This document shows positions 3,356 to 14,710 of a DNA stretch of 23,957 nucleotides, in pieces. The stretch is taken from positions 205 to 24,161 of the IMG/VR virus record IMGVR_UViG_3300000213_000006. One strand, 5' to 3'. Position numbers and translations under genes: made by a program. The stretch comes from a virus. Under the pieces are notes generated by a model, which was not told where the DNA came from, did no database searches, and saw nothing but the letters and a program-made list of their open reading frames with translations. Each line of letters opens with the position of its first letter. The first letter of the stretch is position 1.

Positions 3356-5464
3356 TCATAAGTCATCTAAGTCAAAATCCTCATCTTTGCTTGAATCTAT
3401 AGCAGCAACATAATTAACAGATTCAATCTCTTGCGGTGCAGATTTTACATGTGAAGAATCTAAATAGTTATCTATCCAAGGCACTGGATTGCTACCAAAT
3501 ACAATACCAAGTTTCGTATGGTCTAATCCAATATTAATCATCCGAACCGCAAAGATATAAGTCATATAATCTTTAAGGATAGTCTCATTCATGCCAATAA
3601 GTGGACATCCTTTGCTAAATAAGTATTCAATCCAAGCCATTTCCTCGTTATATGCAGTTCGGAATAGATCATATACTTCTTCATCCATTTCCTTTGCAAT
3701 CTCAACAAACCCCTCAGATTTATCTTCACGAAGCATTTTGATAATTTTTTGGAATATATTAAGATGAATCATTTCATCACGAGCAATCAATTTGAAGATA
3801 TTTGATGAACCAGGGAACAACTTGGTTGGCTGTTCACTAAATGACCAGTTTGTAACAAATGTACTAAAGAATCTGATACCCTCAAACATATTCAACACAA
3901 TGGCAGATTTATATATTGCCTTTTTAACATCAGTCTCCGTGATCTCAGGAAATGGCTTATCTAATCCATTATCGGTACATGTTTTATTTGCATCCATCTT
4001 ATCAAATACTGCGGTAGCACTATCAAAACTTGCCAAAATCGAGGTTGCACGTTTTTGAACTTGTTCATCATGTATAATATTATCAATAAATACATCAACA
4101 TCATTGTAAATTGCACGAACCATTTCAGTATATGATTCAGAATTACCAGTAACAGCCACCTTACCGTTGAGTCTAGTAATGATGTATGAGCTTGGAACAG
4201 TTACACAATATATATTGCCTTCGTAATGTGCCTTAGTTTTCTGAACTGTTCTGCCGGTTACATAATCCCGATCAACAATTGATACTTGGTAATAATCTTT
4301 ACTTCGTTCCCCTAGATCCTCACCATTAAACCCAGTGGTTTTTGATTTATATATGGTTGATCGCTTACCACACAATACTATAATAGCATGAACTTTATTA
4401 ACAGCATCAACATTAGTATTATTATAAACTTTAGTTCCTTCTTTTCTAACACACCCATCCCACAACACAAGGTTATCTAAAAATTCACTACACCATCTAT
4501 GCGACACATGTTCCAAGTTAACCCATTCAAAGGTTTTATCAATATCAAAATCAATCCAAACATAAAAATCGGTATACCCCTCTTTGGTATTATTTTCATT
4601 CACTGTGTGTCTAAACCCATGCAATAATTCCCGAAGTTGTTCCTTTTTTCTTGATTTCTTAAAATGAAATCTAATACAAGTTCCATCTTTCGTAATATTT
4701 CCACCATTTACCAATGTTCCATCTGCTTGGTAGGCAATTGCCATCTTCTCATTTGGAGTTAGATAATGAGTTGACCCAACCTTATATCCAGATACAGGCA
4801 ATTTATGATTAGTAACTGACGTGTCTTCTGCAAATTCCACACGTAATGCATCATCATTATACCTATCAAAATATAAAATTCTATGATTTGGGGTAACCTG
4901 TTGTAAATAGTGTCCTTGTTCAAATGTATACATGTCCCCAGAATATTCAGATTGAATAATATCAAGCGGCGGAGTAAATGTTATAGAACCATCTTCTTCA
5001 TAATTAGCAACTTTGGTATCATTATCTACATCTCTAAAGTCTTTAAATCCTTCCGCAGTCAAAACCTCAGTGCCCTCCACACAACAATGCAATAATTCGT
5101 TATTCTGATGATTGGTGATATACAATTCCCATTCGGGATTATTTGATATACCACCATTATTAAATAGTTGCAATGGTGCTCTACCTGCACAACTATCCAA
5201 TGTGATTGCAAACTTCAACCCAGCTTCATAGATATGCTGCCCAGCCTCGTCTAAACTATCAAAATCTCGCTTTTCATTTGATAAATCAATTTCAAATTTT
5301 GACCAATTGCCAATCGTTCGCATCTCTTCTGCATAATCCATTATCCAGGGGTATTTCGGATCATGAAATGTTTGAATATTTCTATTGCAACTATTCTCAC
5401 CTAAAAATAAATTTGTATTTTTTGATACTACTGTGTCACCTAAATTAAAAATTTTACAACTCAT
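3356..5464 (-). CDS. nrdB: Ribonucleotide reductase class Ia small subunit precursor, interrupted by an intein
   Basis: The 702-aa precursor consists of a 126-aa N-extein, a 315-aa intein and a 261-aa C-extein, giving 387 aa after splicing, a normal NrdB length. NrdB holds the di-iron/tyrosyl-radical cofactor that starts dNTP synthesis in the alpha subunit. Spliced numbering: iron ligands D90 (in LDSCAGR), E123 and H126 (ELLH), E213 (EGIRFF), E249 and H252 (RDEMIH); radical tyrosine Y130 (SESYTEM). The acidic tail DEDFDLDDL resembles the NrdA-docking tail. I chose ATG 5464 rather than an in-frame GTG at 5476 because a GGAG site lies 7 bases upstream of the ATG. The upstream endonuclease gene ends 11 bases before it. 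The intein must be removed before the metal site can form. Confidence 0.96.
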   Translation of the reverse strand: MSCKIFNLGDTVVSKNTNLFLGENSCNRNIQTFHDPKYPWIMDYAEEMRTIGNWSKFEIDLSNEKRDFDSLDEAGQHIYEAGLKFAITLDSCAGRAPLQLFNNGGISNNPEWELYITNHQNNELLHCCVEGTEVLTAEGFKDFRDVDNDTKVANYEEDGSITFTPPLDIIQSEYSGDMYTFEQGHYLQQVTPNHRILYFDRYNDDALRVEFAEDTSVTNHKLPVSGYKVGSTHYLTPNEKMAIAYQADGTLVNGGNITKDGTCIRFHFKKSRKKEQLRELLHGFRHTVNENNTKEGYTDFYVWIDFDIDKTFEWVNLEHVSHRWCSEFLDNLVLWDGCVRKEGTKVYNNTNVDAVNKVHAIIVLCGKRSTIYKSKTTGFNGEDLGERSKDYYQVSIVDRDYVTGRTVQKTKAHYEGNIYCVTVPSSYIITRLNGKVAVTGNSESYTEMVRAIYNDVDVFIDNIIHDEQVQKRATSILASFDSATAVFDKMDANKTCTDNGLDKPFPEITETDVKKAIYKSAIVLNMFEGIRFFSTFVTNWSFSEQPTKLFPGSSNIFKLIARDEMIHLNIFQKIIKMLREDKSEGFVEIAKEMDEEVYDLFRTAYNEEMAWIEYLFSKGCPLIGMNETILKDYMTYIFAVRMINIGLDHTKLGIVFGSNPVPWIDNYLDSSHVKSAPQEIESVNYVAAIDSSKDEDFDLDDL
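4142..5086 (-). mobile_element. NrdB intein with LAGLIDADG-type homing endonuclease
   Basis: In-frame 315-aa insertion. Block A is CCVEGTEVLT: the first Cys aligns with C1 of the Npu DnaE pattern CLSYDTEILT, and this choice restores the E-x-x-H-S-x-S-Y spacing of NrdB. Block B is TPNH. Block F/G reads VTVPSSYIITRLNGKVAVTGN and ends in Asn, followed by Ser as +1 residue. The usual penultimate His is Gly, and the block F His position is Tyr. The middle contains two degenerate dodecapeptides (KMAIAYQADGT and FLDNLVLWDG), each keeping the terminal acidic residue that binds metal in LAGLIDADG enzymes. Family knowledge: such inteins splice themselves out and home into empty alleles. Activity of either function is inferred. 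Confidence 0.92.
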
Positions 5465-5475: not shown

Positions 5476-7104
5476 CTATTTAATGTAAACCAAACTTCCA
5501 CAATCCCACACCCTATCATACCCATTAACCAACATATTATCATATTCCGACATAGTTGAATCAAACACCCTAACCAACTTGTTCAATTTATGTTTCTGAT
5601 ATTTATTCCTTGACTCTAACTTACTATCCACCAAATATCTATAATTTGGTGGCGATTCATGACTTTTCTTCATTCCTACGGCATCATATCCTTTGCCATC
5701 AGAATATCGTCTATCCGCATAACTAACCATATTATCAGGACATCTGGCTAATAATTTACTTAACCCACCAACTACAGTTATCCCTGTTTTAGTAGCACTA
5801 CGAATCAATTCATATTCAATAGCTTTATCATATCTCGACTTCCCAACAATAACCATTTGCATCAATTCATCATTATAGTACAACCCCAACTTAATACCAC
5901 CGCCTCGGAATCCACTCAAATGATTCTGCACCATGAAATCCCTACTTTCGTCCATTGAAACCTCACGCACCACACATTTTCTCGCAAACACTCTATGAGT
6001 CAACCCCAATTTAGATAAAATCATACTCTTCCAGATATTTTGCTTGATTGGATCATTCCATTCATTTTCGTAAATATGAAGAAGCTGAATTCCTCTCTCC
6101 TCACATCCTCTAGTTTTTGCCAAATGGTATGTTCTATCTTTGCCTTTCCCCTCTGTATGCCAATATATACCATTATATTCTATTGCTAATTTGTACTCTG
6201 GCAAAAATATATCAAGTTCCTTGCCACCCAAACATGTCCTATCATTATGCAATACTGGATGAAAAATATGTTCTTTAAGAAACTCAATAATTTCAATCTC
6301 CGCAATAGAATTCATGTACCGTAAATCTACACCTGCCCGGTTTAAATGAACAATAACATTGGATTGCGAAACACCCAATATTTGCGAAACCATTGCACAA
6401 TTCGTATGCTTATTATATAACTCTATCGCTTCATCTATATCAAATAATGTAGGCAAATGATCAAAACTATCTCTATATTTCTTACTCTTGGTGAAAAATT
6501 CACTCCCGTATCTATCCAAACATGTTTCTTTTGCTTTCTGTTTGAACTCTTCTGTTTGTGTATATGATTCACTCCCGTATCTATCTAAGCAAGTTTCTTT
6601 TGCTTTCTGTTTAACTATCGGACTCTGTGATGTTGCACCATACCCATATTTTGTAATATTTGTATTTTTAACACGGGTTTTAAACTCTTCTGTTTGTGTG
6701 TATGACTCATTTCCATATCTATCTAAGCAAGTTTCTTTTGCCTGTTTCCTATTGTTATAGTGTATATCACCATACAACAGTTCTTTGGTTTCTCTCTGTT
6801 TATCTTTCGTGTAATATGTCCCACAGGATAATGAACAAAACTCATAAAAATTTTTAGTATGATCATTCCAATTAGTAATATCATTTCCACACTTGCATTT
6901 GGGGAATCTATCAATATTTTTTAATATCATATGGACACGCATATAAAACTTCACATCACCAAGAAACGAGGTCGAATTAACAATAACATCATAATACTCT
7001 ATAAGACCATGATTAGTAAACCAATCAAGGTGTGTTCTCTTCGGATTTAATGTTCCACTTTTAGTAAGTAATGTATTATTAATAAATGTTGTTAAATTGC
7101 ACAT
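5476..7104 (-). CDS. Free-standing homing endonuclease, Vsr-like (EDxHD-type), between nrdA and nrdB
   Basis: A 542-aa protein from ATG 7104. Parts in order: a zinc-ribbon-like CxC...CxxxC (C70, C72, C90, C94), four tandem 23-residue repeats (123-214), a helix-turn-helix (about 226-258, VSQILGVSQSNVIVHL), and a nuclease core with ELDIFLP (296-302) and LAIEYNGIYWH (306-316). The C-terminal region ends in LESRNKYQKHKL and WDCGSLVYIK. The nuclease signature matches the Vsr-related homing endonucleases typified by I-Bth0305I. The core and C-terminus are clearly paralogous to the endonuclease inside nrdA. ATG 7104 is preferred over GTG 7119 because MCNLTTFINN aligns with the paralogue's MNCILTKKFI. 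The start overlaps the last codons of nrdA-C by 13 bases. The ribosome binding site is poor. It has no intein of its own to mobilise at this site. Confidence 0.87.
   Translation of the reverse strand: MCNLTTFINNTLLTKSGTLNPKRTHLDWFTNHGLIEYYDVIVNSTSFLGDVKFYMRVHMILKNIDRFPKCKCGNDITNWNDHTKNFYEFCSLSCGTYYTKDKQRETKELLYGDIHYNNRKQAKETCLDRYGNESYTQTEEFKTRVKNTNITKYGYGATSQSPIVKQKAKETCLDRYGSESYTQTEEFKQKAKETCLDRYGSEFFTKSKKYRDSFDHLPTLFDIDEAIELYNKHTNCAMVSQILGVSQSNVIVHLNRAGVDLRYMNSIAEIEIIEFLKEHIFHPVLHNDRTCLGGKELDIFLPEYKLAIEYNGIYWHTEGKGKDRTYHLAKTRGCEERGIQLLHIYENEWNDPIKQNIWKSMILSKLGLTHRVFARKCVVREVSMDESRDFMVQNHLSGFRGGGIKLGLYYNDELMQMVIVGKSRYDKAIEYELIRSATKTGITVVGGLSKLLARCPDNMVSYADRRYSDGKGYDAVGMKKSHESPPNYRYLVDSKLESRNKYQKHKLNKLVRVFDSTMSEYDNMLVNGYDRVWDCGSLVYIK
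6463..6738 (-). repeat. Four tandem 69-bp coding repeats (23-aa units)
   Basis: Exact 69-base period, four units, inside the endonuclease gene. Units start KETCLDRYGNES, KNTNITKYGYGA, KETCLDRYGSES and KETCLDRYGSEF. Units 1 and 3 are nearly identical at protein level, and unit 2 is the most diverged. The pattern K-x-T-x-x-x-K/R-Y-G is common in the DNA-binding parts of phage homing endonucleases. It is a coding repeat, not a CRISPR array: there are no unique spacers. Confidence 0.85.
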
Positions 7105-8186
7105 CCACCCGACCCACACCCAGACACAACTGTATCTGATTTATTTTCTTTATCCCTTGTGCGAATATAATACAAACTCTTTAACGAATACTTGTATGCT
7201 GTCAAAATATCACGCTTAACACGGTTCGAATCCAACACCCTATTTGGAATTTTAGTTAAGTCGTACCATTGGTTAACACTAATCCCTTGGTCAATAAATT
7301 TATTGATGACAGCAATCAATTTCAAGTATTCACTAGAATCATTATTCGGCATCTCCCATGCTTTCATATAGTATTTCTCTTTTTCGAAATCTGGTACCAA
7401 CGATTTTACTGTATAACTAGCACTCTCAAATGTATCCGTAATTGATTGTATTGGATCTACCCCTTGGGTGCTATTACTGATCAGGCTTGAACTTGCGGTT
7501 GGCGGAATTGCTGATAAAGCTGTGTTTCTTATACCATATTTCAGTAAATCTTTTCGTAAACCTTCCCAATCACATAACAGATTATTAGCAATCAAACTAT
7601 CTATATTTTTATTGTATGTGTCAATTGGCAAAACACCATCAGAATACAAAGACTGTTTATAGTATTCACACGGACCTCTTTCTTTTGCTAAACTAACCGA
7701 TGCCTTAATTAACCCATATTGGAAACGTTCTGCCCAGCGATGTGTTAATTCTTTCGCTTTTTGTGTTCCCAACCGTGCTTCATGTTTCGCTAAAAAATGG
7801 GCAAAATCAGAAATACCAATACCCAAGAAACGATACCCTTTGGTCGGATATTTAGTTGCATCCATTGGATAATCCTGTATATCAATCAAATTATCAAGAA
7901 ATCTCACCATTAAACTGGTTAAGGTATCTATCCTAGTAATATTTGTCAATTTACCAAAATTCACACATCCAAGGATACATAATGATATCATACCATCATT
8001 CAAATCATAATCTGTGATGTTTTCAAAGTCAGTTTGTTTAAGACCATCAAATTTCATAGCCCTAGTTGGAAGGAATATTTCGGAGCAATTATGAACTAGT
8101 ATACCATTGGCATAAAAGTTATGTGTCTCCTCAACTGTAATATCATATACCGGAATTTGTTTGTTTAGTTTTCTAATTTTTAGCAT
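7092..8186 (-). CDS. nrdA: Ribonucleotide reductase large subunit, C-terminal fragment fused to intein C-half
   Basis: A 364-aa protein: residues 1-33 are the C-terminal half of a split intein, and 34-364 the C-terminal 331 aa of NrdA. Residue 34 is the thiyl-radical cysteine in CSEIFLPT (E. coli Cys439, in the N-L-C-x-E motif). Other landmarks: C70 in ISLCILG (E. coli Cys462, redox pair), the radical-transfer tyrosines Y339-Y340 in SLYYIRTRD, and the C-terminal CGSGGC shuttle pair (C357/C362) ending in AI. Joined to the N fragment it gives 765 aa, the usual NrdA length. The ATG at 8186 has a strong AAGGAAAGAG site and overlaps the upstream endonuclease by 7 bases. Alone it lacks the ATP-cone, Cys225 and half of the barrel, so it must be spliced in trans. 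Confidence 0.95.
   Translation of the reverse strand: MLKIRKLNKQIPVYDITVEETHNFYANGILVHNCSEIFLPTRAMKFDGLKQTDFENITDYDLNDGMISLCILGCVNFGKLTNITRIDTLTSLMVRFLDNLIDIQDYPMDATKYPTKGYRFLGIGISDFAHFLAKHEARLGTQKAKELTHRWAERFQYGLIKASVSLAKERGPCEYYKQSLYSDGVLPIDTYNKNIDSLIANNLLCDWEGLRKDLLKYGIRNTALSAIPPTASSSLISNSTQGVDPIQSITDTFESASYTVKSLVPDFEKEKYYMKAWEMPNNDSSEYLKLIAVINKFIDQGISVNQWYDLTKIPNRVLDSNRVKRDILTAYKYSLKSLYYIRTRDKENKSDTVVSGCGSGGCAI
8088..8186 (-). mobile_element. Split intein, C-terminal half (NrdA)
   Basis: 33 residues starting at the initiator Met. They contain block F (IPVYDITVEETHNFYANG, His22) and block G (ILVHN, ending His32-Asn33), followed by Cys as +1. All C-terminal splicing residues are canonical. 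The length is typical of natural split-intein C parts of about 35 aa. The partner half is encoded by 9747-10079. Confidence 0.95.
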
Positions 8187-9763
8187 TGTTCTCTTTCCTT
8201 GGTGAATACTACATTACCACAATCCCACAATCTCCTGTATGAATTGTTAAACATGTTTTGACTTTCTGTTAAATTCGCATCGTAATCTTCCAATAATGCG
8301 ACCAACTTATGTTTTTGATACTTGTTTCTACTTTCTAACCGCACTTGGTTTTTTGCAATATAGAAGTAATTAGGCAAACTGTTGCCCATATTATTAAATC
8401 CCAGCTTTGTGTATAAATCTCCACGACTCCATCTTCTATTGGCGTATGTTATTATACTATATTGCTTCATCTTAGTCAACAACTTTGATGCTCCACCAAC
8501 CACATGCACACCCTTCATAGAACAGTAGCGAATTAATTCATAATCGTATTTCTTGTTAAACCGTGGTTTTGAGAATGTCATTACCGCTACGATAGTATCA
8601 TCATATTCTAATCCATACGAAATACTTGTCCCAATGCCACCTTGTAAATGATTATCATCGCAGAAATTCCTTGCGACCAACGATGTTATCTTAACAGCGT
8701 TGGTTTTACGCCCATATATTGTTGTATTCTTCCCTAATTTACCATTTATCACCGACTTCCATATTTCTTGTTTTGTGGGATTTTCCCATTCATTGCTAAA
8801 AATGTGCAACAAATGTATACTTTGGCGTTCACATTCTACCGTTTTGCGTAAATGCATTGATTTATCTTCAATCATCGCATTGTTTGGAAATGTTTTACCA
8901 AAACTATGCCAAACAATACCATTGTATTCGATTGCTAACTTGTTATCTGGTAAATATATATCTAATTCTTTCCCATCCAATATTGTCCGATCATTCCGAA
9001 CTAGGTTATGTCCTTGTAAGAATTCAACTAGTTCCCTCTCAGCCGAACTAGAATTTGTTATTTTTATTCCATGCTTTCTTAGATATACTGACACCGTTGA
9101 GTGTGCTACTCCGATGATACTTGCAATTTTGGTTGCACTTTCGTACTCACCGTAAAGTTTCTCCAATACATTCTTATTTTCTAATATATCATAGGTAGTT
9201 GAATCTGTCCGCGACCGCCATACATTACTATCACCATAACGTTTTATATTCGTCTCGGTGCGTTTCTTTTTAACATCTGCAGATTTTGCTGAACATTGCA
9301 AAGAACAATATGTTGGATAGCCCAGCTTAAATGTTACTATTTTGTGTAGTCTGACACCACAATGGTGACAAACAGCACCATCGATCCCGTGGTATACATT
9401 ATAACATTCCGTTGCAGAAACATCATATAGGCACATTTTACCTTGTGATAACTTTCCGTTCGGCAATATAAATTCAGTCGCTATTAGTTCTTTCGTAATT
9501 GAATGACTCTTATTCTTGTTTATGATGACCTGTTTGCTACATCGAGAAGAACATGTTGCCCGAAATCCTTTCCTAAAACTAACAAACCGGGTATAATCAC
9601 CACACAATTCACATTTCCCCTTTTCTGCCATCTCATGGAATACCATATATAGCTCCATTGGTGTGGATTCTATTCCAAACCGCTTCATATTCACAGGGCT
9701 AAGTCTACCATCAACTGTTAGTAAATTATCATCAATGAACTTCTTAGTTAATATGCAATTCAT
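8180..9763 (-). CDS. Free-standing homing endonuclease in the break of the fractured nrdA gene
   Basis: A 527-aa protein from ATG 9763. It has two zinc-ribbon-like units (C51/C54...C71/C75 and C132/C135...C153/C157), a helix-turn-helix (about 205-234, IASIIGVAHSTVSVYL), and a Vsr-like nuclease core with SAERE (240-244), ELDIYLP (266-272) and LAIEYNGIVWH (276-286). The C-terminal module ends in LESRNKYQKHKL and LWDCGNVVF. The gene occupies exactly the gap between the two split-intein halves, the arrangement named fractured genes. It probably cleaves intein-less nrdA near the Cys439 codon and so spreads the whole split. It overlaps the nrdA-N stop by 20 bases and the nrdA-C start by 7. A GTG at 9781 is a possible earlier start, but the paralogue's N-terminus supports the ATG. 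Its ribosome binding site (GAAAG) is weak. Confidence 0.88.
   Translation of the reverse strand: MNCILTKKFIDDNLLTVDGRLSPVNMKRFGIESTPMELYMVFHEMAEKGKCELCGDYTRFVSFRKGFRATCSSRCSKQVIINKNKSHSITKELIATEFILPNGKLSQGKMCLYDVSATECYNVYHGIDGAVCHHCGVRLHKIVTFKLGYPTYCSLQCSAKSADVKKKRTETNIKRYGDSNVWRSRTDSTTYDILENKNVLEKLYGEYESATKIASIIGVAHSTVSVYLRKHGIKITNSSSAERELVEFLQGHNLVRNDRTILDGKELDIYLPDNKLAIEYNGIVWHSFGKTFPNNAMIEDKSMHLRKTVECERQSIHLLHIFSNEWENPTKQEIWKSVINGKLGKNTTIYGRKTNAVKITSLVARNFCDDNHLQGGIGTSISYGLEYDDTIVAVMTFSKPRFNKKYDYELIRYCSMKGVHVVGGASKLLTKMKQYSIITYANRRWSRGDLYTKLGFNNMGNSLPNYFYIAKNQVRLESRNKYQKHKLVALLEDYDANLTESQNMFNNSYRRLWDCGNVVFTKEREQC
8191..8200 (-). promoter_or_regulatory. Strong ribosome binding site of nrdA-C
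   Basis: AAGGAAAGAG lies 4 bases before the ATG at 8186, inside the endonuclease coding end. It is much closer to the consensus than the sites in front of either endonuclease gene. This suggests that the essential NrdA fragment is translated more than the endonucleases. Confidence 0.65.
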
Positions 9764-11381
9764 CGCTTTCAACAAGATCACTGGCTTTCACATACCCATT
9801 ATTCTTAGTATATACCATATGATCGCCAGTACAGACTAGTCGTTGTCCAGTAGCCTCATCCTCAATTTCAAAAACGTCCGCCAATTTATGTGTTTGCGCA
9901 AATGCCGTTATTTGTCGATACTCATCTTCTTCATTGGTTATATTATAACTTAATACTTCAATATTATTATATTCCTGTTCTGTTATGTTATCCAACTGAT
10001 CAATTCGAATTGTCTCATTAACGATATTATTGAGTGCATTGGTATACCGTACAGAAATCATTGTGTCTCCTGCCACACACAAATTAGTTTGGGTAATTCG
10101 TTCCTTAAACATCCCCTGTTTATTAATATTATCAATAAAATGAATGTATATTCTTCCAGTTCCCACTCTCTCTTTAACGAGTTTATCAAATATCTCTTTT
10201 GCTGGCAATACTTCTTTTCGAATTCCACGCTTTTTCTCATACATCACATACGCTTCATCAAACTTATCAGTATCACCATAGAATTCAAATAGATCTGGAA
10301 CTTCTTCCGCACTAAACAGGGTAAAGTTTTCCTTTTTTAAGACACGATCAATAAAAATAGATGTCAAACCAATACTATAATCAATAAACCTTGCCCTGGT
10401 GGTATTACTCCCTTGGTTATTTTTGTACTCCAGAATGTCCATGATTTCAAAGTTAAATATAGGATAATTGACTACAGTAGCACCCGATCGTAATGCATTC
10501 TGTGTAAATTGTTTTGATGTCGCTTCGATTGATTTCAGTATAGGCAATGCACCAGTATGTTTTACTGTATTATTTTTTACGGGTGCAAGAATAGAACGCA
10601 CATTCCCCATATCAATACCAATTCCAGCGCGTTGTGAAGTCATCAGTGATAATGCATACTCTGTGCTAAGAATACTCTCAGTAGAGTCTCCCATCTTGAT
10701 CTTACAACAGGAACTAAACATTTTTAATTGAGTTCTTACCCCAGAAATGATTGGAGTTGGTAATGAAATTTCATCATTTTTTAATGCAGTATAGAACTCT
10801 ATAATAAGTTTTCTTCTATTTTTCTCGGTTGCAAAAATGACCATTGGAATTATCATGAATGTTTCTTGTGGCATCTCCAATAGAATATCAGTTTTGGAAT
10901 CTTTAATTAAATATTTTGATTCCATTTGAACAATTGATGCATATCCACGATTAAAATTATTATCATAATCTAAGAAATCACCAAAATCACTTATTTCGGC
11001 TTCTGTATAATTCTCTAGTAATTCTGGGCTATACAATCCAGAATTAACATTCTTTGTAATATATTCTAAAAATGGTGGTATTTTTCCACTTCCCCCATAT
11101 ACTTGCCTGCGCATATCAGTTACTAATAATCGACCAGCAAAGATATCATAATCTGGGGTATCCACGGAGATCATTTCTGCGGCTGATTTAATCAAGGTGT
11201 GCTGAATATCAACTGTCTTGATTTTATTGACAATCTTAATTTCTGCTTTGATTGCTGTGTCAGAAACCGACACATTTAATCCATCGGAACACCACTCCAA
11301 CATCCTATGGATTTTGTCATAATTTAATAACTCAAGACTTCCATCACGCTTTTTTACATAAATTTCATTAACTGTTGTCAT
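9744..11381 (-). CDS. nrdA: Ribonucleotide reductase large subunit, N-terminal fragment fused to intein N-half
   Basis: A 545-aa protein: residues 1-434 are NrdA and 435-545 the N-terminal half of a split intein. The start EIYVKKRDGSLELLNYDKI is an ATP-cone (allosteric activity site, about residues 5-95). The catalytic barrel begins after it: C225 in FSSCCKIKMGDS matches E. coli Cys225 of the active-site redox pair, and the extein ends at T-N-L, where N433 is E. coli Asn437. The next residue of NrdA, the catalytic Cys, is supplied by the other fragment. The enzyme reduces ribonucleotides to deoxyribonucleotides for phage DNA synthesis. ATG 11381 has a good AAGGTG site and lies behind a candidate sigma70 promoter. 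First gene of the operon. Confidence 0.95.
   Translation of the reverse strand: MTTVNEIYVKKRDGSLELLNYDKIHRMLEWCSDGLNVSVSDTAIKAEIKIVNKIKTVDIQHTLIKSAAEMISVDTPDYDIFAGRLLVTDMRRQVYGGSGKIPPFLEYITKNVNSGLYSPELLENYTEAEISDFGDFLDYDNNFNRGYASIVQMESKYLIKDSKTDILLEMPQETFMIIPMVIFATEKNRRKLIIEFYTALKNDEISLPTPIISGVRTQLKMFSSCCKIKMGDSTESILSTEYALSLMTSQRAGIGIDMGNVRSILAPVKNNTVKHTGALPILKSIEATSKQFTQNALRSGATVVNYPIFNFEIMDILEYKNNQGSNTTRARFIDYSIGLTSIFIDRVLKKENFTLFSAEEVPDLFEFYGDTDKFDEAYVMYEKKRGIRKEVLPAKEIFDKLVKERVGTGRIYIHFIDNINKQGMFKERITQTNLCVAGDTMISVRYTNALNNIVNETIRIDQLDNITEQEYNNIEVLSYNITNEEDEYRQITAFAQTHKLADVFEIEDEATGQRLVCTGDHMVYTKNNGYVKASDLVESDELHIN
9747..10079 (-). mobile_element. Split intein, N-terminal half (NrdA)
   Basis: 111 residues after N-extein T-N-L. 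Block A is CVAGDTMISV with the Cys1 nucleophile, and block B is CTGDHMVYT (T518 and H521 of the precursor, the T-x-x-H motif). It ends SDELHIN and a stop codon. No endonuclease domain is present between the blocks, as expected for a split intein whose endonuclease is encoded separately. Together with the 33-aa C half it forms a complete mini-intein of 144 aa. Confidence 0.94.
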
Positions 11382-13804: not shown

Positions 13805-14710
13805 TCATTTTTTCGGATATGGATCAACCAATGAATGGAATTGCTGATCAACAACACACATTTTACACTGTGGGATAGGAGTATCCAATGCATTATAAAA
13901 ATCATTATTATAGTCAGTATAATTTTCAATAGTTAACGGTTTATATTGGTTTAACAGGGCAATATCTTCATTTGGTATTTCTAGCAATCCTTGATCTATT
14001 AAGTCCAAATAATGCATAACATTGCCACATTTATATAATTTTCCTTTTATAAAATTGTATGTTTTAAATTCAACATAATGACATGCATCATGTGCATCCT
14101 GTGGATTATTATTAGATAGAGTCCATTTATCATCATTTGATATCAACGAGTTATTGAGAAAATCTGTTTCCGTTATAAGTGATAATCTGACCCCTCGATG
14201 TTTATTGCCAATTGGATCAACCCATTCACCGTTCCCCTTAATACCATCATGAAAATAATCAGATGGATATGGATGACCCTGTGTATTCCGTTCATGGAGA
14301 TGATACGGAGGGGTAAGATATTCATCTATAATATCATATATCTGTTGCCTAGCTAATTCATAATGAAGACTTATCTCAATTTCTATATTATTATCTTCTT
14401 GTGCTTGTTTTAACCCTTTCGCTCTGGCTAGATATGTGCCATTGGTTAATAACACAATCCTAGTATCCGGCCATAATTCACGTAACCCATACATCCATTG
14501 CGTAACCGTAGGGTTCATTAATGGTTCACCACCTATAATTACAATTTTGTCATCAAATGTAACTCGCTTACTCCATTCTTTGTATAAGTCTTTATAATCG
14601 TCCCAATGCTGATGTCCTTTAAATTTTAAATTATTAAATCGGTTACACCCATTGCATGTAAGATTACATACATTGGTAATATAAAATTCTGCTATATTAA
14701 GATGTTTCAT
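13805..14710 (-). CDS. Radical SAM enzyme with possible auxiliary iron-sulfur site
   Basis: A 301-aa protein beginning with a beta strand and CNLTCNGC (C15, C19, C22), the CxxxCxxC motif that binds the SAM-cleaving [4Fe-4S] cluster. IIGGEP (58-63) is the SAM-binding GGE motif, and IVLLTNGTYL is a later barrel strand. Four further cysteines, C210, C228, C282 and C285 (QCKMC), could bind a second cluster, as in SPASM/twitch enzymes. Family members modify peptides, nucleic acids or cofactors by radical chemistry; the substrate here is unknown. No candidate precursor peptide is obvious beside it. It lies directly upstream of the exonuclease, which hints at nucleic-acid metabolism but proves nothing. 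Confidence 0.85.
   Translation of the reverse strand: MKHLNIAEFYITNVCNLTCNGCNRFNNLKFKGHQHWDDYKDLYKEWSKRVTFDDKIVIIGGEPLMNPTVTQWMYGLRELWPDTRIVLLTNGTYLARAKGLKQAQEDNNIEIEISLHYELARQQIYDIIDEYLTPPYHLHERNTQGHPYPSDYFHDGIKGNGEWVDPIGNKHRGVRLSLITETDFLNNSLISNDDKWTLSNNNPQDAHDACHYVEFKTYNFIKGKLYKCGNVMHYLDLIDQGLLEIPNEDIALLNQYKPLTIENYTDYNNDFYNALDTPIPQCKMCVVDQQFHSLVDPYPKK

What the first reader, a model, noticed from the sequence alone, without database searches (positions are those of the whole stretch)
7092..11381. Fractured nrdA: split intein breaks the RNR large subunit exactly at the thiyl-radical cysteine
Two separate proteins encode NrdA. The first ends in extein T-N-L followed by a 111-aa intein N-half; the second starts with a 33-aa intein C-half followed by C-S-E-I-F-L-P-T. 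Joined, they restore the N-L-C-x-E motif of class I RNR, so the +1 nucleophile of splicing is the same cysteine (E. coli Cys439) that carries the catalytic radical. The joined length of 765 aa is normal. Established knowledge: fractured genes with split inteins and an endonuclease between the halves have been described, including for RNR genes. The site choice makes clean loss of the element impossible without restoring the active site exactly.
Basis: partly seen in the sequence, partly recalled or inferred. Interest (0 to 1): 0.85.

Follow-up and report, generated by a model that had tools for sequence, protein, structure and literature searches.

The report
Split intein at reductase radical cysteine
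In this marine virus the gene for the DNA-building-block enzyme ribonucleotide reductase is broken into two, and each half carries part of a self-splicing protein tag predicted to rejoin them exactly at the enzyme's radical-bearing cysteine; such 'fractured genes' are already known, but here the same codon proves to be hit in many divergent viruses by one kind of tag carrying interchangeable DNA-cutting genes.

Summary
nrdA is two ORFs: a 434-aa extein + 111-aa intein N-half, and a 33-aa intein C-half + 331-aa extein. Joined (765 aa) they align end to end with E. coli NrdA, and the +1 residue is Cys439. It is a phage 'fractured gene' of the type described in 2009, so a new member of a known kind. 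What is added: (1) the nearest relatives carry intact nrdA (79% identity), whereas the intein's relatives sit in only 28-41% identical NrdAs, so the element was acquired horizontally. (2) 80 of 80 examined viral loci (468 matches) plus Yersinia phage TG1 have a related split intein at the same codon; the nuclease in the gap belongs to unrelated families (GIY-YIG, HNH, here a Vsr/EDxHD type) or is missing. (3) The nuclease and its paralogue between nrdA and nrdB carry a C-terminal domain related to the phage Mu Mom DNA-modification enzyme. (4) nrdB carries its own intein just before the radical tyrosine, so both ends of the radical pathway are interrupted. Trans-splicing and homing are inferred, not shown. 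The 'impossible clean loss' argument holds for any intein and is not specific evidence.

The parts
9744..11381 (-). nrdA-N ORF (545 aa): N-terminal half of class Ia RNR large subunit fused to intein N-half
10080..11381 (-). N-extein, 434 aa, ends T-N-L
   Evidence: alignment to 2r1r
9747..10079 (-). IntN, 111 aa: C1-V-A-G-D-T, block B C-T-G-D-H
8180..9763 (-). HE1, 527 aa, predicted homing endonuclease: two CxxC-type zinc motifs, TyrR-like HTH (197-234), Vsr/EDxHD-like nuclease (about 238-345), Mom-like GNAT domain (about 354-466). Start overlaps the IntN ORF by 20 nt, stop overlaps the IntC start by 7 nt (ATGCTAA)
7092..8186 (-). nrdA-C ORF (364 aa): intein C-half fused to C-terminal half of NrdA
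8088..8186 (-). IntC, 33 aa, ends V-H-N
7095..8087 (-). C-extein, 331 aa; first codon (8085-8087) is the +1 nucleophile = E. coli Cys439
5476..7104 (-). HE2, 542 aa, Hef-like paralogue of HE1 (about 34% identity) at the nrdA/nrdB junction; start overlaps the end of nrdA-C by 13 nt
3356..5464 (-). nrdB interrupted by a contiguous intein
4142..5086 (-). NrdB intein, 315 aa (CCVEGTEV...AVTGN), probable LAGLIDADG type, inserted NELLH^SESYTEM between the ExxH iron ligands and the radical tyrosine

Best explanation
nrdA is a 'fractured gene'. NrdA-N and NrdA-C are made as separate proteins from one overlapping operon; the two intein halves associate, and trans-splicing excises 144 aa and joins TNL to CSEI. 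The thiol of Cys435 (E. coli Cys439) first acts as the +1 splicing nucleophile and afterwards as the radical-bearing catalytic cysteine, so no active reductase can exist before splicing. HE1, encoded between the halves, is a free-standing homing endonuclease expected to cut intact nrdA alleles near this conserved codon, so that repair copies the IntN-HE1-IntC cassette into them. The cassette entered this phage lineage horizontally, and the nuclease slot is modular. Shown here: anatomy, insertion codon, empty sites, horizontal distribution, nuclease families. Inferred: splicing, cleavage site, homing.
For: Full-length alignment of the joined extein to E. coli NrdA with C439 at +1; intein profile and sequence matches to solved inteins; empty-site alleles in the closest relatives; the extein tree puts the window inside a set of intact NrdAs (SH-aLRT 100), while the intein is about 48-58% identical to inteins in NrdAs only 28-41% identical, TG1 excepted at 38%; same codon in all 80 best viral loci and in TG1, with GIY-YIG, HNH or EDxHD genes in the gap; nuclease fold and profile match to I-Bth0305I; only 28 weaker matches in 84,980 cellular genomes.
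Against: No experimental proof. The IntN profile score is just under the NCBIfam cut-off and both halves are under Pfam's gathering score. HE1's target is unknown. HE1's nearest relatives are mostly free-standing genes with no intein detected nearby, so its tie to this intein may be loose or recent. The phylogeny of the intein itself is poorly resolved (long branches).
Confidence: 0.88

Rival explanations
1. The halves assemble non-covalently into an active NrdA without splicing, as reported for Aeromonas phage Aeh1 whose nrdA is split by mobE.
For: Precedent in PMC3653736 and PMC2988022.
Against: Here the halves end in recognisable intein halves with conserved C1, block B TxxH, HN and C+1; without splicing the radical cysteine would stay behind 33 extra residues, so its loop could hardly form (inference).
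Confidence: 0.05
2. The split nrdA is decaying and non-functional, and the phage relies on the host reductase.
For: Insertions at three places in one operon.
Against: The catalytic positions are kept; frames are open in independent contigs; the same split persists in many divergent lineages.
Confidence: 0.04
3. HE1 and HE2 are not homing enzymes but a restriction-modification type weapon: the nuclease attacks competitor or host DNA while the Mom-like domain modifies the phage's own DNA, as proposed for Mom-nuclease fusions of jumbo phages (PMC7824862).
For: Mom relationship: hhalign 97%, E 1e-10, Foldseek best hit 8bv8; published reading.
Against: HE1 occupies the slot that GIY-YIG and HNH nucleases hold in related fractured nrdA loci; HE2 sits where T4 mobE and U5 hef sit; relatives sit between genes 23 and 24 and next to uvsX, known homing-gene places. 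The two roles are not exclusive.
Confidence: 0.2

Closest known systems
Fractured genes with split inteins and Vsr-related endonucleases (Dassa et al. 2009, NAR 37:2560; includes NrdA-2)
   Same: Enzyme gene in two ORFs, each with half an intein, free-standing nuclease between them; nrdA among the hosts; Vsr-related nuclease; phage setting (the paper is not held; partly from memory, partly via PMC3653736 and PMC7090010).
   Different: This locus adds a second paralogous nuclease at the nrdA/nrdB junction and an intein in nrdB. Whether NrdA-2 lies at the same codon could not be checked.
Yersinia phage vB_YenM_TG1 nrdA (KP202158)
   Same: Split intein at the same codon (SNL^CAEI), nuclease in the gap, and an HE1/HE2-like gene between nrdA-C and nrdB.
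   Different: Gap nuclease is annotated HNH; nrdB has no intein; extein only 38% identical.
Campylobacter phages CP20/CC_R7 and Klebsiella phage KP13-7 nrdA
   Same: Related split intein within the NLCxEI motif.
   Different: Split one residue later (NLC^CEI), so the radical cysteine is the last N-extein residue; different gap genes; a further intein in the C-terminal part.
Aeromonas phage Aeh1 nrdA interrupted by mobE
   Same: nrdA in two proteins with a nuclease gene between.
   Different: No splicing element; the split enzyme is functional as it is (PMC2988022, PMC3653736).
T4 mobE and U5 hef between nrdA and nrdB
   Same: Free-standing nuclease at the nrdA/nrdB junction, as HE2; the mobE start overlaps the nrdA stop, as here (PMC2988022).
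   Different: HE2's cleavage site is unknown; MobE and Hef cut nrdB. The U5 Hef sequence itself was not compared.

Membership tests
Fractured-gene locus (split intein + free-standing nuclease) | Conserved enzyme broken in two ORFs whose inner ends are intein halves | tested here: met
Fractured-gene locus (split intein + free-standing nuclease) | Endonuclease gene between the two halves | tested here: met
Fractured-gene locus (split intein + free-standing nuclease) | Intact intein-less alleles in relatives | tested here: met
Fractured-gene locus (split intein + free-standing nuclease) | Protein trans-splicing | not testable with these tools
   needs co-expression
Class 1 (standard) intein | Cys1, block B TxxH, C-terminal His-Asn, Cys+1 | tested here: met
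   CVAGDT; C-T-G-D-H; VHN^C, conserved in the alignment
EDxHD / Vsr-like homing endonucleases (I-Bth0305I) | Vsr-like nuclease domain with conserved acidic and His residues | tested here: met
   profile vs 3r3p E 1e-8; Foldseek 3r3p target TM 0.64, Vsr 1cw0 0.50; invariant D268, E279, H286
EDxHD / Vsr-like homing endonucleases (I-Bth0305I) | Cleavage of intein-less nrdA and homing | not testable with these tools
   needs enzyme assay and mixed infection
Mom DNA-modification (GNAT) family, for the HE1/HE2 C-terminal domain | Homologous fold with conserved pocket positions | tested here: met
   hhalign 97%, E 9.6e-11; Mom invariants H58, E108, R111 line up with HE1 H372, E409, R412; D149 falls on an Asn in HE1 but on Asp in HE2 and many relatives
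Mom DNA-modification (GNAT) family, for the HE1/HE2 C-terminal domain | Adenine modification activity | not testable with these tools
   needs base analysis of DNA
Aeh1-type genes-in-pieces (no splicing element) | Split without intein or intron | tested here: not met
   intein halves present
Class Ia ribonucleotide reductase NrdA | Catalytic residues equivalent to C225, N437, C439, E441, C462, Y730/Y731 and C-terminal cysteines | tested here: met
   alignment

The most novel reading that the evidence does not exclude
The radical-cysteine codon of nrdA is a standing landing slot in phages: one split intein lineage spreads horizontally while unrelated nucleases (GIY-YIG, HNH, EDxHD) replace one another between its halves, often with the same 7-nt start/stop overlap. 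In this phage the slot holds a self-contained nuclease plus Mom-like base-modification enzyme, a homing endonuclease that may mark or protect DNA as well as cut it.
Probability: 0.3. Interest if true: 0.72.

Novelty: new member of a known kind. Interest (0 to 1): 0.5.

Why it matters
It is a clean natural case where one cysteine must serve as a splicing nucleophile and then as the radical catalyst of an essential enzyme, so dNTP synthesis by the phage enzyme would depend on protein trans-splicing. The survey shows the same codon invaded across divergent phages with interchangeable nucleases, including split inteins with no nuclease left, which makes the proposed route from mobile intein to naturally split gene directly testable. 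The nuclease plus Mom-like fusion links two literatures (Hef-like homing enzymes and jumbo-phage 'restriction-modification' fusions) that may describe one protein family.

Tried and rejected
Non-splicing complementation as in Aeh1: set aside because intein halves are present. Assembly artefact: rejected, same layout in independent contigs. Cyanophages S-RIM50 and Syn9 seemed to carry the split (match from residue 1), but their nrdA is one contiguous gene of about 767 aa; the match simply over-extended. NrdB intein first read from the second Cys (NELLHC^C); intact relatives show the insertion is NELLH^C, i.e. 315 aa. The Tenacibaculum PTm1 nrdB intein is related but at another site. A close-relative scan with the intein halves found only the same virus; a motif alignment was needed. 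Dassa 2009 and Carvajal-Vallejos 2012 are not held, so the NrdA-2 insertion codon stays unchecked. The intein tree has long branches and was not used to order nuclease swaps. Structure prediction of the joined intein was not attempted, since the joined chain is not read from one stretch of DNA.

Full report
WHAT IS THERE. The window is part of a 24,161-base virus record. On the minus strand the order is nrdA-N, HE1, nrdA-C, HE2, nrdB. nrdA-N is 434 aa of NrdA plus a 111-aa intein N-half; nrdA-C is a 33-aa intein C-half plus 331 aa of NrdA; joined, 765 aa. The joined protein aligns end to end with E. coli NrdA, E 3e-183, and counting along the 2r1r row puts the junction between L438 and C439, the radical cysteine. 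Other catalytic positions are kept: FSSC, NLCxE, the second active-site Cys, the YY pair and the C-terminal cysteines (residue roles are established knowledge).

IS IT AN INTEIN. The C-half scores 46.6 bits against NCBIfam intein_Cterm (cut-off 15.6); the N-half 22.2 against 24.5; Pfam Intein_splicing is matched in order by both halves below threshold. Joined halves match the NrdJ-1 split intein (E 8e-17), an Spl DnaX mini-intein and gp41-1. C1, block B TxxH, HN and C+1 are all present.

EMPTY SITES AND ORIGIN. 70 further viral loci found with nrdA-C match only its extein part; those that span the junction carry a contiguous nrdA, without indels in the closest ones (79% identical over the whole protein), and read TNLCSEI with no insert. 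Two loci, L002 and L003, are near-identical copies of the window's virus with the same split. In a tree of exteins the window lies in a set of 20 rows with 19 intact NrdAs (SH-aLRT 100), apart from the other split ones. By contrast the intein's relatives (about 48-58% identical; IntC 76% in most; TG1 is the exception at 38%) sit in NrdAs that are only 28-41% identical. So the element most likely came in horizontally.

THE SAME CODON ELSEWHERE. A motif scan with IntC gave 468 related places; the best 80 were kept and all 80 are ORFs that begin with IntC and continue C-[QSTM]-E-I into NrdA-like sequence. The ORF in the gap is GIY-YIG in most, HNH/NUMOD3-like in L182, TG1-like in L172 and L177-179, EDxHD in the window and probably in L116, and absent in L145 (71-nt gap) and L174 (4-nt overlap). 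Pfam does not itself recognise the TG1 and L172 gap proteins; TG1's is HNH by its record's annotation and L172's by similarity to it. 65 loci, the window's virus included, share a 7-nt overlap in which the start of IntC, ATG(C/T)TAA, contains the stop of the upstream gene, across three unrelated nuclease types. Many of these loci are close relatives of one another, so they are not 65 independent events. Among cultured phages, Yersinia TG1 has the same site; Campylobacter CP20 and CC_R7 and Klebsiella KP13-7 split one residue later (NLC^CEI); Sphingomonas PAU has a contiguous intein at NL^CTEI. In 84,980 cellular genomes the same scan gave only 28 weaker matches.

THE NUCLEASES. HE1 and HE2 are about 34% identical to each other and match PHROG 3339, homing endonuclease. 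A profile of 17 family members hits the I-Bth0305I catalytic domain (3r3p, E 1e-8). The AlphaFold model of HE1 (mean pLDDT 78) matches 3r3p and Vsr and, best of all, phage Mu Mom, a GNAT-fold protein. Profile-profile comparison with a Mom alignment gives 97% probability, E 1e-10, over HE1 residues 354-466, with the Mom H, E and R positions lined up. Mom-nuclease fusions in jumbo phages were read as restriction-modification (PMC7824862). The positions seen here (inside a split intein, at the nrdA/nrdB junction, and in cultured phages between genes 23 and 24 and next to a RecA-like uvsX gene) favour homing enzymes that carry a Mom-like domain. HE2's site equals that of T4 mobE and U5 hef, both of which cut nrdB (PMC2988022).

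NRDB. Intact relatives read NELLHSESYTEM or one substitution from it; the window has NELLH^(315 aa)^SESYTEM. Aligned to E. coli NrdB this is just after the E115-x-x-H118 iron ligands and a few residues before Tyr122 (residue roles from established knowledge). Thus both the radical-tyrosine region of NrdB and the radical cysteine of NrdA are interrupted.

HOW IT MOST LIKELY WORKS. Overlapping genes give coupled synthesis of the halves (inferred); the halves trans-splice (inferred from conserved chemistry and known relatives); HE1 cuts intact nrdA and the cassette is copied in by repair (inferred). Rivals and refuting results are listed in their sections.

NOVELTY. Fractured nrdA genes have been known since 2009 (cited in PMC3653736; NrdA-2 in PMC7090010), so this is a new member of a known kind. 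The recurrence at one codon with interchangeable nucleases, and the Mom-like domain on the homing enzyme, are the parts I would bring to a specialist.

Noticed in passing
window 4142-5086: A 315-aa contiguous intein in nrdB lies between the ExxH iron ligands and the radical tyrosine; related phage inteins cover its full length, but the PTm1 nrdB intein is at another site.
   Followed up: partly
window 8180-9763 and 5476-7104: Both nucleases carry a C-terminal Mom-like (GNAT) domain behind a Vsr/EDxHD nuclease; the jumbo-phage literature reads such fusions as restriction-modification, their location here suggests homing.
   Followed up: partly
L145 (6606-7001) and L174 (178-471): Split nrdA inteins at the same codon with no nuclease between the halves: possible end-stage of nuclease loss with the split kept.
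   Followed up: partly
L172, L177-L179: The NrdA frame before IntN is only about 250 aa, suggesting nrdA is broken a further time upstream in these phages.
   Followed up: no
L098, L102, L101: Campylobacter and Klebsiella phage nrdA split one residue downstream (NLC^CEI), and bear a further intein in the C-terminal part.
   Followed up: partly
L116: nrdA-C with the same IntC, the tail of an HE1-like gene just upstream, and a second intein motif inside the C-extein ORF.
   Followed up: no
window 13805-14710: Radical SAM domain protein in the phage (PHROG hits).
   Followed up: no
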